Below, in pieces: positions 9,588 to 16,455 of a DNA stretch of 64,000 nt. The notes under the pieces are model-generated. The model made no database searches. It was not told the origin of the DNA and was given only the letters and a program-made list of their open reading frames with translations. How positions within the stretch are numbered: the stretch's first letter is position 1; each line of letters opens with the position of its first letter. The DNA comes from Rhodospirillaceae bacterium SYSU D60007. GTDB lineage: Bacteria; Pseudomonadota; Alphaproteobacteria; Reyranellales; Reyranellaceae. The stretch spans positions 1-64,000 of the forward strand of contig QOCQ01000022.1 of the NCBI GenBank assembly GCA_003574685.1, given 5' to 3'. The translations under genes were made by a program, and so were the position numbers.

Positions 9588-12500
9588 TTGGCCGATCACA
9601 GTCCAGCGTTCGTCGTCGGGATCGGTGCCTCTGCCGGCGGGGTGGAGGCACTGCGCGGCTTCTTTCGCCACATGCCGCCCGACAGCGGCATGGCATTCGT
9701 TTGCGTCACGCATACCGGACGAGGGCAACATAGCGTCCTGCCGGAGATCGTCGGCCGCGGTACGCCAATGCCGGTACGCACCGTTGCCGAAGGGATGCAG
9801 ATCGAAGCCGACCATGTCTATATCTCGCCGCCGGGAGCCATCGTGACTGTCGGTAACGGGATTTTTCATGTGCAGACGCTGACGTCGTCCGTCGAACGCA
9901 AGCCCATCGACGTTTTTCTTTCCTCACTTGCACACGGTTACGCCGAAACGGCGATCGGCGTTCTGCTCTCGGGCAGCGGCACCGACGGTGCGCTCGGCAT
10001 CAAGGCCATCAAGGAACATGGCGGACTGACGCTGGCCCAGGTCTCGGACGGGACGGGATCCATGCATGCCAGCATGCCTGACGCGGCGATCGCAGCCGGC
10101 GTGGTCGACCTCATGTTGCCCGTCGAGCAGATGGCCGGCAGGTTGATCGCCTACAGGCACAGCTTCAGACCGGTTCCGACGGGTGAGGCAAGCGGGGACG
10201 ATTCCGACCTTCAGACAGATCCACAGCAGGAAATCTGCAAGATTCTGCTCGACCGGGTCGGTCATGATTTCAGCGGCTACAAGAAAAAGACGTTTATACG
10301 GGGGGTGCAGCGTCGCATGCAGGTGCTCCAGGTGCAGGAAATTGCCGCCTACTTCGATCGCCTCCGGTCCGACCCCGAAGAGGTAACGCTGCTGTTCCGC
10401 GACCTCCTGATCGGCGTGACAAACTTCTTTCGCGATCAGGAGGCTTTCGAGGCACTGGAGCAGCAGATCATCCCCACACTTTTGGAGAGCAGGGGTATCA
10501 ACGATACGATCCGCATCTGGGTGCCCGGTTGCGCGACCGGCGAGGAGGTGTATTCGCTCGCGATCCTGCTTCGCGAGCACGCACAGACCCGCAGCAAGCC
10601 GCCCAAGGTCCAGCTCTTTGCCACCGACATTGACGAGGCGGCGCTGGTGATCGCCCGAAGCGGCCGTTACCCGACCCAGTCGCTGGAAAATGTGTCGCCC
10701 CAGCGGCTGAAGCGCTTCTTCACGGGCGACGACGTCAGTCATGCAGTGAAAAAGGATATCCGCGATATGTGCATTTTCTCAATGCACAATGTCATTCGCG
10801 ACCCGCCATTCTCCCGACTGGATCTGATTTCCTGCCGCAATCTGCTGATCTATTTCGGCGCGAATTTCCAGGCTCATGTCCTGCCGGTCTTCCATTTTGC
10901 CCTGAAGCCAGGCGGTTTTCTATTCCTCGGCACGGCAGAGAACGTCAGCCAGCATGCCGACCTGTTCGTGCCAATCGATAAAAAGTTCCGCATATTCCAG
11001 CGACGCGACCAGGTCGTGCTGCCGCTGCCGCCTGCGCTGTTCACCGCCACCCGGCGGCACACGTCAGTCGGCCTCGACGGCCGCCACAACGACGCAGTGA
11101 GCGTAATGAACGTGCGCCGGGCCGTCGAGCTGCGCGTCATGGAGCGCTTTGCGCCCCCGCATGTGGTGGTGAACCGCGACGGTGATATCCTGCATTTCTC
11201 ATCGCGTACCGGGAGATACCTGGAGCCGGCAGCCGGTCTGCCGAACCGGCAGCTCGTCGCCATGGCACGCCGGGACTTGCGACTGGATTTGCGATCAGCG
11301 CTGCACGAAGCCGTGGAGAGGCGCCACCCGGCGGTGCGGCGCGATCTCTCGGTGGAGACGGAGGACCGGATCCAGCGCGTCGATCTGACGGTGGAACCGC
11401 TGGGGGACAACGAGAACGATCCGCTGTTTCTCGTGGTGTTTTTCGATGTTGGACCGCCAGTGCCGCCAACGGCCGCCGACCCGGCGCGCAGCAGCTCCGA
11501 CAAGGCCCTGGAACGGCTGGAGCAGGAGCTGCGCGACACGCGCGAGCGGCTGCATGCGACCATCGAGCAGTACGAGACGGCGGGCGAGGAGCTGAAATCC
11601 TCCAATGAGGAACTGCAGTCCATGAACGAGGAGCTGCAGTCGACCAACGAGGAGCTGGAGACGTCGAAAGAGGAGCTGCAGTCGGTCAACGAAGAGCTCC
11701 ATACCGTCAATGCCGAACTCAATTCCAATGTCGAACAGCTCGATCGTGCGCATAGCGACCTGCGCAACGTCTTCGACTCGACCCAGATCGCCACCATCTT
11801 CCTCGACAACAACCTCTGCGTTCGCAGCTTCACGCGCGCGGTGACCGCGATCTTCAACCTGATTTCCAGCGATCACGGACGGCCGTTGACCGACATCGTC
11901 AACCATCTCGCCCAGGGTAACGACCTGCGCCGCGACATTCTCACGGTGATCGAGACAGGACGTCCGGTGGAGCGCAACGTGAAGCGGGCCGACGGCAGCG
12001 CGCATTACATGATGCGGATCGTGCCGTATCAGGCACACAATCAATTCATTGACGGTGCGCTGGTCACGTTCGTGGACGTCACGCGCATCGTCGAGGCCGA
12101 GGCGCACCAGCGCATGCTGGTGGAGGAGCTGAACCACCGGGTGCGCAACATGCTGACGGTGATCGGCGCCATCGCCAACCAGACGATGGCGAGTGCCCGC
12201 ACGCCGAAGCTGTTCACTGAGGCGTTCCTAGGCCGCGTGAACGCGCTGGCGCAGTCCTACAGCCTTGTGTCGCGCGAGAACTGGCGCGCTGTCTCGTTGC
12301 GCGACATCATCATGACCGAGGTGGTGCCGCACATGACGGGCGACCGCAGCCGCGCCGACATCAACGGGCCGGATGTGAGACTCGACTCCGCGCGTGCACT
12401 GGGGCTCGGGCTGGTCTTTCACGAGCTGGCGACGAACGCCACGAAGTACGGCGCGTTCTCCGTTCCCGCGGGGAAGCTGCGCGTAACGTGGAGCTGCGAG

Positions 12501-12707
12501 CCGGACGAGATCGTGGTGCAGTGGCACGAGTCGGGCGTGCCGAATGTGCGGCCGCCCGATCATCGTGGCTTTGGCACCGAGCTGATCGAGCGGCAGCTCA
12601 GCGCCGGCTTCAGTGGCAGTGCGACGGCCGAATTCACGCCCGACGGCCTGCACATGCGTATCGCGATTCCGTGGCCGGGGCCGGAAGCGGTCGCGGGCAG
12701 ATGCTGA
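9588..12707 (+). CDS. CheB-CheR-PAS-HWE hybrid sensor histidine kinase
   Basis: 1039 aa. CheB methylesterase, residues ~1-190 ([21 protein letters not shown]). CheR methyltransferase, ~210-490 (TNFFRD and the SAM loop GCATGEE near 314). Long Glu-rich coiled coil, ~638-718. PAS, ~724-835. HWE kinase, ~840-1035, with phospho-acceptor [11 protein letters not shown]-box [14 protein letters not shown] and the WHE motif. The start is TTG at 9588, right after GGGAGGG. Such fusions couple methylation-type domains to phosphorelay; HWE kinases often feed general stress or light responses. No receiver is attached, so a separate regulator must be its target (one lies at 14304). The cytosolic location is inferred from the lack of membrane segments. 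Confidence 0.9.
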
Positions 12708-14303: not shown

Positions 14304-14675
14304 TCAGCGCTCGCGCTCCTCCATCATGGCCCAAAGGGTCCGCACCACGTGCCGGGGATCAGACGGTTTTTCGACAAAGGGCCGCTCGATGTGGCGGCGG
14401 GGCACGATGGCACGGCTGTGGCCCGAGACGATGACAAAAGGGATGCCCGCCTCATCAAGGGCATCCGCGACAGGAAAAGACTTCTCGCCGTGCAGGTTGA
14501 GATCCAGCACGACACCGTCAGGATGCCAGCGGCGCACCTGTTCCAGGGCAGCCTGGACCGTGCCGGCTGTCGCGATATCCTTGCATCCCGCCTCGGCCAG
14601 GACGTCTTCGAGTTCCATCGCCAGCAGGATTTCGTCTTCGACAACGAGAACGCGGCGATCCCTCAGACTACCCAT
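14304..14675 (-). CDS. Single-domain response regulator (receiver only)
   Basis: 123 aa. VLVVEDEILLAMELEDVL gives the acidic pocket, VVLDLNLHGEKSF the phospho-accepting Asp, VIVSGH the Thr/Ser position and PFVEKPSD the conserved Lys. There is no output domain. This receiver type often partners HWE/HisKA_2 kinases, such as the one encoded at 9588. It overlaps the upstream zinc-ribbon gene by 8 bp, so they are cotranscribed. Confidence 0.9.
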   Translation of the reverse strand: MGSLRDRRVLVVEDEILLAMELEDVLAEAGCKDIATAGTVQAALEQVRRWHPDGVVLDLNLHGEKSFPVADALDEAGIPFVIVSGHSRAIVPRRHIERPFVEKPSDPRHVVRTLWAMMEERER

Positions 14676-15099
14676 CTGCGCCCATTCCTTGCCGGGCCAG
14701 ACGCCTGTAGGTCAGCAGGGCATGAAGCGTGCGGGCAAGCAGGTCGGCCAGAATTTCGGCCGCCCGGGTGTCGTGTCCGCGCAGCCGCATGCGCGCGATC
14801 AGTTCCCGCTGCCGCTCCACGCGCTCCCGCGCATGGTCGATGGCCCGTTCGATATGTGCCAGTTCGTCAGCGTCAGGGACGGCTTCACGCTCGGCGGAAG
14901 TCTGATGGCAGCATCGCGGGCATTCGAACACCTCGACAATATGGCGATGGCGTACGTCGTGCCGGTGTACGCCGATCAGCCGGCTACGGGCGCCGCAGCG
15001 CTGGCACCGCGGCCAGGCAGGCAGGGGCCCGGCGTATGCCGGCCTCAGCGGCTGTGTCGTAAAGGCCACGATCTCTACCGCCGGAGTTGAAGCTGCCAC
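14668..15099 (-). CDS. Zinc-ribbon plus helical-tail protein (paralogue B), response-regulator-linked
   Basis: 143 aa from a GTG start. PRCQRCGARS and FECPRCCHQ form the four-Cys ribbon (residues ~30-68). The tail ARERVERQRELIARMRLRG then LARTLHALLTYRR is a helical pair. Both halves align with the protein at 7258-7665 (shared FECPRC.H, RVERQ..L and AE.L spacing). It is sandwiched between a 51-aa membrane protein (25-bp overlap) and a receiver protein (8-bp overlap). A role as accessory to a phosphorelay is inferred only from context. An upstream alternative start was not seen. Confidence 0.7.
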   Translation of the reverse strand: MAASTPAVEIVAFTTQPLRPAYAGPLPAWPRCQRCGARSRLIGVHRHDVRHRHIVEVFECPRCCHQTSAEREAVPDADELAHIERAIDHARERVERQRELIARMRLRGHDTRAAEILADLLARTLHALLTYRRLARQGMGADG

Positions 15100-15230
15100 G
15101 TCGTCGGGCTGGGAGAGCCAGGCGCCTCAAGGCGCCCGGCGAGGTACCAGCCCAGAAGGGCCGATCCCATGAGACTTGCGCACATCATCAGGGCGGCCAG
15201 CCAGCCGGGATGCCGGTTACCCATGACCAT
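15075..15230 (-). CDS. 51-aa single-pass membrane protein
   Basis: Starts MVMGNRHPGWLAALMM, has one hydrophobic helix (~residues 10-32, ending LLGWYLAGRL) and a short polar tail. GGTGGAG precedes the ATG at 15230; the second Met, at 15224, is better spaced from it. It overlaps the zinc-ribbon gene by 25 bp, making a three-gene leftward operon with it and the response regulator. No family recognised. CTCAAG/CTTGAG arms (15246-15279) lie just upstream and could be an operator. Confidence 0.55.
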   Translation of the reverse strand: MVMGNRHPGWLAALMMCASLMGSALLGWYLAGRLEAPGSPSPTTWQLQLRR

Positions 15231-15296: not shown

Positions 15297-15328
15297 CCCG
15301 CCGCCAAAGTTGCGGCTTTGGCGGCGGG
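15297..15328. other. Perfect 13-bp hairpin without T-tract
   Basis: CCCGCCGCCAAAG (15297-15309) and CTTTGGCGGCGGG (15316-15328) pair perfectly around six bases. It follows the intrinsic terminator at 15350 in the leftward direction and may be a second stop signal or a boundary for the downstream operon. Confidence 0.45.
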
Positions 15329-15349
15329 CCACACAAAGGATACAGCACG

Positions 15350-15385
15350 AAAAAAGCCCCGCTGCGGGGGGAGTTGCAGCGGGGC
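15350..15385 (-). terminator. Rho-independent terminator (leftward)
   Basis: On the minus strand GCCCCGCTGC (15385-15376) pairs with GCAGCGGGGC (15365-15356) over a 10-nt loop and is followed by six Ts (15355-15350). A textbook intrinsic terminator. It can end both the TPR gene transcript (stop at 15517) and the short transcript predicted from the EcfG-type promoter at 15456. Confidence 0.85.
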
Positions 15386-15448
15386 CGAATGCGGGGACAG
15401 GAGCTTGGGGAAACTCCCGTCTGGAGGTCAGGGGAGCTGAGCCTCCTG
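15350..15448 (-). ncRNA. Candidate EcfG-dependent small RNA (~100 nt)
   Basis: Defined by an EcfG-type promoter upstream (15456-15480) and the intrinsic terminator at its 3' end. The predicted RNA has no good reading frame. Its 5' part can fold as GGAGG-CT-CAG pairing with CTG-A-CCTCC around a C-rich CTCCC loop, and it carries further CTCC and CCCC runs able to pair with ribosome binding sites. This resembles the general-stress RNA GsrN of Caulobacter in logic (sigma-T promoter, C-rich loop); no sequence homology is claimed. The transcription start is inferred, not observed. Confidence 0.5.
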
Positions 15449-15455
15449 AAGCATG

Positions 15456-15480
15456 AACGTCACCACAGGGCAAAAGTTCC
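15456..15480 (-). promoter_or_regulatory. EcfG-type (general stress) promoter motif
   Basis: Minus strand GGAAC (15480-15476), 16-nt spacer, CGTT (15459-15456). This equals the published alphaproteobacterial EcfG consensus GGAAC-N16/17-CGTT. It reads leftward from the 3' side of the TPR gene into the candidate small RNA. By chance the nine fixed bases would be rare in a window this size, and the position in a noncoding gap supports it. Confidence 0.6.
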
Positions 15481-15516: not shown

Positions 15517-16455
15517 CTAAGGCTGCTGGATGCCGTAGCGGCCATACCGCTCAGCAATGGCGGGTTCCAGGTGCCGGGCGATCGCAATATCGGCGCCGCC
15601 GCCGGCCAGATCGCCTTTGGCCAGCTTGGCCACGCCGCGCAGGAAAAGGGCACCAACCATCGCGGGATTGCGGGTGAGCACGGTATTGAAGTCAGCGATG
15701 GCCTTGTCATGCTCGGCCTGTTTCAGATGCACCATGCCCCGCCCGACAAGGGCGTTGGTATCGGCGGGATTGAGACGGAGCGCCGCCTCGCAGTCGGCCA
15801 GGGCGTCGGCGGCCTGCGCCAGCGCCAACCGGGCGTGGCAGCGGTGGGTCAAGGCCGTGGCGTCCTTCGGGTCCAGCGCCACCGCCTTGTCGAAATCCAC
15901 GACCGCACGGCCAAAGTCGCCGCCTTCGGCAAAGGCCGTGCCGCGGTTGACGAGAGCGGGGGCATAGTCGGGATCAAGCCGCAGCGCCTGGTCGAAATCG
16001 ACAAACGCGCGCTCGCGGCGGCCGGTCGACAGCCATGCCATGCCGCGATTGTTGAAGAGGCGTGCATCGCCGGCCTTCATGCGGATCGCGGCGCTGTAGT
16101 CGGCGATCGCGCGGTCAAGGTCGCCCTTGTTCTTGTAGGCGAGCCCCCTGTCCGCGAAGAAGTCAGGATCCGTCGGGTTCAGCCGGATGGCGTCGCTGAA
16201 ATCCTCGATGGCGTGCTCGTTCTCTCCCTTGCGGATCCAGGCAAGGCCGCGGTTGTAGTGGGCGATGGCCCGGTTGCCCGGCGAGCCGCCCCCTGACCGG
16301 ATAAGGGCCGTGCAGGTCTCAATGGTCTGCTCGGCCGTCAATCCCGGCTGATAGCAGGCATTCGGCTGCAACCCGGTTTGCGCCGGCGCCGGCAAGGCTG
16401 CCAGCGCCAGCAATGCCGCGCCGCCCAGGCGCGTGCCGAGAAACCCCAATTCCAC
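15517..16455 (-). CDS. Exported TPR-repeat protein
   Basis: 312 aa with an N-terminal signal peptide (LGGAALLALAALPAPAQ, cleavage near residue 26) and at least six consecutive TPR units from ~residue 65 to 300 (e.g. AIAHYNRGLAWIRKGE, DFDQALRLDPDYAPAL). Probably a periplasmic scaffold. TPR proteins of this Sel1/lipoprotein-NlpI-like style mediate protein assembly but carry no catalytic clue. Single gene. Confidence 0.8.
   Translation of the reverse strand: MELGFLGTRLGGAALLALAALPAPAQTGLQPNACYQPGLTAEQTIETCTALIRSGGGSPGNRAIAHYNRGLAWIRKGENEHAIEDFSDAIRLNPTDPDFFADRGLAYKNKGDLDRAIADYSAAIRMKAGDARLFNNRGMAWLSTGRRERAFVDFDQALRLDPDYAPALVNRGTAFAEGGDFGRAVVDFDKAVALDPKDATALTHRCHARLALAQAADALADCEAALRLNPADTNALVGRGMVHLKQAEHDKAIADFNTVLTRNPAMVGALFLRGVAKLAKGDLAGGGADIAIARHLEPAIAERYGRYGIQQP

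What the first reader, a model, noticed from the sequence alone, without database searches (positions are those of the whole stretch)
15350..15480. Candidate general-stress small RNA with EcfG promoter and intrinsic terminator
A GGAAC-N16-CGTT motif and a perfect leftward terminator bracket ~100 noncoding bases whose 5' part folds with a C-rich CTCCC loop. Alphaproteobacterial stress RNAs such as GsrN share this logic. It lies just downstream of a TPR gene and upstream of a phosphorelay-type operon.
Basis: partly seen in the sequence, partly recalled or inferred. Interest (0 to 1): 0.72.

Follow-up and report, generated by a model that had tools for sequence, protein, structure and literature searches.

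The report
Stress-switched small RNA with C-rich loops
A short stretch between genes of an unnamed alphaproteobacterium probably makes a small regulatory RNA under stress; it resembles known RNAs that block ribosome sites on messages, and looks like a stress-controlled sibling of another RNA found in most of its relatives.

Summary
On the minus strand, GGAAC-N16-CGTT (15480-15456) precedes about 100 nt that fold into three hairpins and end in a perfect terminator. The motif alone is not beyond chance; the motif plus terminator, the fold (z -6.6) and conservation are. A covariance model of the RNA without its promoter found a relative in one same-genus genome (E 1.3e-6), in another gene context, with its own GGAAC-N16-CGTT at nearly the same distance (29 against 28 nt). 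Searching outward revealed a second RNA with related loops in 68 of 75 genomes of the bacterial family, this one included, under a different conserved promoter block and without a Rfam match at curated cut-offs. The window RNA is best read as an EcfG-driven sibling of it. Its loops are C-rich, as in ar14, sX13 and GsrN; it matches ar14 end to end at 44.5 bits (cut-off 58.8), so it is ar14-like, not filed as ar14. Likely action, inferred: C-rich loops pair with G-rich ribosome sites during stress. The TPR gene and response-regulator operon do not flank the relative. Expression, EcfG dependence and targets are untested; NepR was found, EcfG itself was not located.

The parts
15456..15480 (-). 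EcfG-type promoter motif: -35 GGAAC (15476-15480), N16, -10 CGTT (15456-15459)
   Evidence: same motif before the relative in G003
15349..15452 (-). small RNA as modelled; start predicted near 15449, not mapped
   Evidence: fold z -6.61; models R1, R2, R3 and ar14 match it
15423..15446 (-). hairpin 1, GGAGG/CCUCC stem, loop CUCCC (15436-15432)
15396..15421 (-). hairpin 2, apical UUUCCCCAAG (15413-15404; unpaired CCCC in the best fold)
   Evidence: related loop in R3-type RNAs
15350..15386 (-). intrinsic terminator, loop AACUCCCCCC (15375-15366), six U
15517..16455 (-). TPR protein gene upstream of the RNA (context; not conserved beside the relative)
14304..14675 (-). single receiver-domain protein downstream (context)
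14668..15099 (-). 143-aa ORF overlapping the receiver gene, no Pfam or NCBIfam match (context)

Best explanation
A trans-acting small RNA, transcribed under stress from an EcfG promoter and ended by its own terminator. Its three hairpins present C-rich loops (CUCCC, UUUCCCCAAG, AACUCCCCCC) that pair with G-rich translation starts of messages and mostly lower their translation. It is a relative of a family-wide C-rich-loop RNA that the same genome carries under another promoter; the shared loop sequences mean that stress adds to, or extends, the same regulon. Shown in sequence: promoter motif, fold, terminator, one same-genus relative with the same promoter, relation to the second RNA. Inferred: transcription, EcfG dependence, targets, direction of the effect.
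For: Fold z -6.61. Motif plus terminator 1 real, 0 of 600 simulated windows. R1, built without the promoter, finds G003:C34 at E 1.3e-6 among 75 genomes, and a GGAAC-N16-CGTT starts 29 nt before that match, 28 nt in the window. 4 of 31 pairs changed on both sides between the two. NepR, the anti-sigma factor of EcfG, found with 39.4 bits, cut-off 25.7. R3, built from other genomes, has the window RNA as this genome's second match, 37.4 bits, E 2.9e-6. Runs shared with the sibling: CCCCAAGC and CTCCCCCCG. C-rich loops of sX13, NfeR1 and GsrN act on G-rich or ribosome-site sequences in the literature (passages).
Against: No transcript data. The EcfG motif is barely enriched genome-wide (99 against 82). 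Only one relative of the EcfG-driven type was found: 2 of the 4 genus genomes in R2's search of 40. With two sequences the covariation is modest (28 of 500 shuffles as high). The terminator loop of the relative lost its C run, and that relative matches R3 only weakly (19.8 bits) and was missed by the genome-scale R3 search. EcfG and PhyR were not located; the ORFs tested around nepR showed no sigma factor.
Confidence: 0.62

Rival explanations
1. The segment is the 3' end of the TPR message: the terminator ends that transcript, any short RNA is a processed 3' UTR fragment, and the EcfG motif is a chance match.
For: The TPR stop (15517) is only 36 nt before the motif on the same strand; the motif alone is expected by chance about 0.35 times per window; no terminator-like site was listed between them.
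Against: The relative in G003 follows an unrelated 109-aa ORF yet keeps motif and spacing.
Confidence: 0.2
2. It is a leader or attenuator of the downstream small ORFs and receiver gene.
For: Same strand; the 143-aa ORF starts about 250 nt after the terminator.
Against: A further perfect 13-bp inverted repeat lies between; a different gene, an EamA transporter, follows the relative.
Confidence: 0.06
3. It is a real small RNA, but similarity to the family-wide RNA and to ar14 is convergence on C-rich loops, so it is not a sibling by descent and need not share targets.
For: Outside the loops the window RNA and the sibling share little; R1 gave the sibling type only E 0.006 to 0.01; an unrelated EcfG-motif segment with three C-rich hairpins exists in G094; R3 also gives weak hits in other families.
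Against: R3 ranks the window RNA far above the rest of its own genome (E 2.9e-6), with matching order of hairpin 2 and terminator.
Confidence: 0.3

Closest known systems
ar14 small RNAs (Rfam RF02344; NfeR1 of Sinorhizobium meliloti)
   Same: Three hairpins with C-rich loops and a terminator; end-to-end match of 44.5 bits, E 1.3e-6 in the genome and the best ar14 hit in 75 genomes, next 30.5.
   Different: Below the cut-off of 58.8; lacks the CCUCCUCCC motif said to be ultraconserved; NfeR1 has an RpoD promoter (PMC10746234, passages), not an EcfG motif.
sX13 of Xanthomonas (RF02232)
   Same: Three stable stems with 4C, 4C and 5C loops (PMC3771888, passages); full-length alignment with UCCCCAAG matched.
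   Different: 25.1 bits against a cut-off of 50; a gammaproteobacterial RNA; no EcfG promoter reported in the passages seen.
GsrN of Caulobacter
   Different: GsrN has six C in the 5' loop; here the longest C run is in the terminator loop. Not compared by sequence; nepR lies on another contig.
RNA of model R3 (this report), family-wide sibling
   Same: Hairpin-2 and terminator loops related; 37.4 bits.
   Different: 30 of 30 aligned copies have TTGsGNCTAGC upstream and none an EcfG motif; an extra small hairpin; single-stranded 5' C-rich motif.
CcsR (cuckoo) RNAs of Rhodobacter
   Same: Stress-induced, C-rich motif.
   Different: CCUCCUCCC motif absent; RpoHI/RpoHII promoter and DUF1127 neighbour there (PMC10253847, passages), none here in the 8 proteins tested.
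RpoE2-dependent small RNAs of Sinorhizobium
   Same: General-stress sigma motif before small RNAs: 23 predicted, 8 intergenic regions with array support (PMC3616915, passages).
   Different: Not compared by sequence here.

Membership tests
ar14 (RF02344) | Score at or above Rfam's gathering cut-off (58.8) | tested here: not met
   44.5 bits, positions 1-123 of 123
ar14 (RF02344) | CCUCCUCCC in the unpaired region of each hairpin | tested here: not met
   absent from the sequence; loops are CUCCC, CCCC, AACUCCCCCC; feature from PMC10746234
ar14 (RF02344) | Three hairpins | tested here: met
sX13 (RF02232) | Score at or above the gathering cut-off (50) | tested here: not met
   25.1 bits
sX13 (RF02232) | Three stems with C-rich apical loops | tested here: met
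   feature from PMC3771888
GsrN | Transcription from an EcfG (SigT) promoter | tested here: inconclusive
   motif present; activity not testable here
GsrN | 5' hairpin loop with six tandem C | tested here: not met
   5' loop is CUCCC; the six-C run is in the terminator loop
GsrN | Sequence similarity to GsrN | not tested
   no GsrN sequence was fetched
GsrN | Location beside the general stress genes (usual, with C. crescentus an exception) | tested here: not met
   nepR is on contig C1, the window on C15
CcsR / cuckoo RNAs | CCUCCUCCC motif and DUF1127 neighbour | tested here: not met
   motif absent; no DUF1127 in the 8 neighbouring proteins scanned; no CcsR match at E up to 1
EcfG regulon | Promoter consensus GAAC-N16,17-C/GGTT | tested here: met
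   consensus from PMC4814048
EcfG regulon | General stress regulators in the genome | tested here: inconclusive
   NepR found; EcfG and PhyR not searched genome-wide, none seen among ORFs scanned near nepR
EcfG regulon | Loss of transcription without EcfG | not testable with these tools
   needs an experiment

The most novel reading that the evidence does not exclude
The genome carries a two-RNA riboregulator: a family-wide C-rich-loop RNA under its own conserved promoter and an EcfG-driven sibling with overlapping loop sequences, so that the general stress response tunes a standing post-transcriptional regulon by means of a promoter-switched copy. Neither RNA reaches the cut-off of a described Rfam family.
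Probability: 0.35. Interest if true: 0.62.

Novelty: new variant of a known kind. Interest (0 to 1): 0.48.

Why it matters
If true, the general stress response of alphaproteobacteria can plug into a standing C-rich-loop RNA regulon by promoter exchange, in a lineage beyond Caulobacter and rhizobia. It also points to an RNA conserved across a whole bacterial family and not in Rfam, whose targets can be sought through shared loops. The kind itself (stress-sigma RNAs with C-rich loops) is already known.

Tried and rejected
blastn of the RNA in 61 genomes (own plus 60 relatives) found only itself, so covariance models were used. The TPR protein search in 61 genomes gave many TPR paralogues and no clear orthologue (best non-self 219 bits, 42% identity, against 689 for itself). 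The receiver protein in genome contigs gave 5 distant loci that I did not use. Plasmid records: no match. Rfam at gathering cut-offs: nothing in the window. Weak ar14 hits elsewhere (13 besides the window) had no EcfG-like motif in the 100 nt before them.

Pattern searches for further EcfG-driven copies: motif plus CTCCCC (32 of 75 genomes, many matches plainly unrelated) and motif plus CCCCAAG (21 matches in 18 of 75 genomes against 11 for the reversed control). In one search I folded nine of the first set and overlooked one; a systematic screen (53 loci, 69 motif places, two places counted twice) found 11 terminator-ended segments. Besides the window and G003:C34, one had C-rich loops in all three hairpins: G094:C102 (L090), z -5.65, with a weaker U tail, 53 nt before a gene with an MgtC domain. 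It matches neither R2 nor R3 nor Rfam there, and could be a leader; I list it as a possible analogue only. This set was chosen for C-rich downstream sequence, and covers only the loci returned. The fold of L199 used wrong coordinates and is not used; L185 folds no better than shuffles.

The first R1 alignment put hairpin 2 of L103 on hairpin 1, so L101, L102 and L103 were aligned anew for R3. The sibling as a mere ccmA leader was considered and doubted. Taxonomic identity of the genome was not established; a literature search on one guessed genus name gave nothing useful.

Full report
What is there. On the minus strand, 36 nt after the stop of a TPR gene (15517), lie GGAAC-N16-CGTT (15480-15456) and about 100 nt ending in a perfect intrinsic terminator. 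The published consensus of EcfG promoters is GAAC-N16,17-C/GGTT (PMC4814048, passages). The 104-nt segment folds into three hairpins at -51.9 kcal/mol, z -6.61, none of 200 shuffles as good. All three loops are C-rich: CUCCC, CCCC within UUUCCCCAAG, and AACUCCCCCC.

Is it more than chance? The promoter motif alone is not: 0.35 expected, 29 of 100 shuffles, and 99 in the genome against 82 for the reversed control. The combination of motif and strong terminator is met once in the real window and in 0 of 600 first-order simulated windows; real DNA has more terminators than simulated DNA (3 against 0.1), which explains part of the contrast.

Conservation. A covariance model of the window RNA alone, without promoter (R1), was run on 75 genomes of the bacterial family, the own included. 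The best other match, E 1.3e-6, is in a same-genus genome (G003:C34:38365-38478, L100). A GGAAC-N16-CGTT starts 29 nt before that match, against 28 nt in the window. That segment folds with z -4.15. Between the two, 96.8% of cells form standard pairs and 4 of 31 pairs changed on both sides; with two sequences this is modest (28 of 500 shuffles as high). Loops 1 and 2 keep their C-rich sequence; the terminator loop of the relative has lost its C run. The gene context differs: an unmatched 109-aa ORF before it and an EamA transporter after it, though a receiver protein 47% identical to the window's lies about 6 kb away. A model of both sequences (R2) found nothing else convincing in 40 family genomes, including the two other genus members held (next E 0.68).

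A second, family-wide RNA. Weaker R1 hits in G009, G013 and G020 (E 0.006 to 0.01) shared the hairpin-2 and terminator loops. A model of these three (R3) matched 69 of 75 family genomes at E up to 0.1, 68 of them at 2.4e-19 or better, this genome included at C14:81424-81541. The window RNA is the second R3 match of this genome, 37.4 bits, E 2.9e-6; the EcfG-driven relative in G003 scores only 19.8 bits. I aligned 30 of the 68 copies plus the window RNA (29 distinct rows): every cell forms a standard pair and 9 of 20 pairs changed on both sides, no shuffle of 500 as high. Five of those nine owe their only two-sided change to the window RNA; helix 1 does not vary among the family-wide copies. 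The alignment was fitted to the structure and leans towards it. All 30 copies have TTGsGNCTAGC upstream and none an EcfG motif; the window RNA is the reverse. Of 34 loci, 27 have ccmA directly downstream on the same strand, 2 about 2 kb downstream, 1 on the other strand and 4 (all four of one genus) not at all within the stretch held, so the RNA is probably not merely a ccmA leader (ccmABC named). Of the five copies scanned (L101, L102, L103, L152, L166) none reaches a Rfam cut-off; the only match on the RNA is ctRNA_pGA1 at E 0.52 on L102. In 385 genomes of the class, R3 also gives weaker hits in 7 genomes of other families, C-rich RNAs or segments without an EcfG-like motif in the 110 nt before them.

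Known relatives. Rfam ar14 matches the window RNA end to end with 44.5 bits, below its cut-off of 58.8; it is the best ar14 hit among 75 genomes, the next having 30.5. The hallmark CCUCCUCCC is absent. sX13 gives 25.1 bits. GsrN shares the promoter logic and C-rich loop, but was not compared by sequence. So the RNA works like these and is filed under none of them. EcfG-type (RpoE2) promoters before small RNAs are known in Sinorhizobium (PMC3616915, passages), so the kind is not new.

How it probably works. Stress frees EcfG from NepR (general knowledge; NepR found), EcfG transcribes the RNA, and its C-rich loops pair with G-rich translation starts. That mode is described for sX13, NfeR1 and GsrN and is inferred here. 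GsrN activates katG, so the direction can differ between targets. Runs shared with the sibling, CCCCAAGC and CTCCCCCCG, predict overlapping targets. The window also holds a kinase with an HWE domain (9588-12707), a type that often feeds the general stress response (recalled), which is suggestive only.

Limits. No transcript data, no targets, EcfG and PhyR not located (looked at 20 ORFs near nepR), two sequences of the EcfG-driven type, organism unnamed. Searches for an earlier description; no listed title or abstract named an EcfG-driven ar14-like RNA, in a library of open-licence papers only. All papers cited were seen as passages, none as a whole.

Noticed in passing
L152:1501-1618 + (G000:C14:81424-81541): A C-rich-loop RNA in 68 of 75 genomes of the bacterial family, often directly before ccmA, with no Rfam match at cut-off; the likely sibling of the window RNA.
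   Followed up: partly
upstream of R3-type RNAs, e.g. before L152:1501: TGTGA-N7/8-TCACA inverted repeat within 90 nt upstream of 22 of 30 copies, a possible regulator site.
   Followed up: no
L090:1402-1560 - (G094:C102): EcfG motif followed by three hairpins with C-rich loops before an MgtC-domain gene; same plan, no match to models R2 or R3; RNA or leader.
   Followed up: partly
window 15297-15328: Perfect 13-bp inverted repeat with a 6-nt loop and no T run, between the RNA and the downstream ORFs.
   Followed up: no
window 15075-15230 -: 51-aa ORF with a hydrophobic stretch, overlapping the start of the 143-aa ORF; no NCBIfam match.
   Followed up: no
window 14304-14675 - and 9588-12707 +: The receiver protein matches PRK13435 and the PhyR receiver below cut-offs; a CheB/CheR/PAS/HWE kinase lies nearby.
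   Followed up: no
L111:7699-8412 - (G000:C1): nepR beside a single receiver gene; no sigma factor among 20 ORFs scanned there; a GGAAC-N16-CGTT points away from it.
   Followed up: partly
L176 and L177 (family f115): Related C-rich RNAs in two genomes of another family, with a shared upstream block.
   Followed up: no
L168 (G031:C227:3832-3951 -) and L165 (G003:C42:9992-10069 -): Second R3-like copies, 44.4 and 34.8 bits, with no EcfG motif seen in the 100 nt printed upstream.
   Followed up: no
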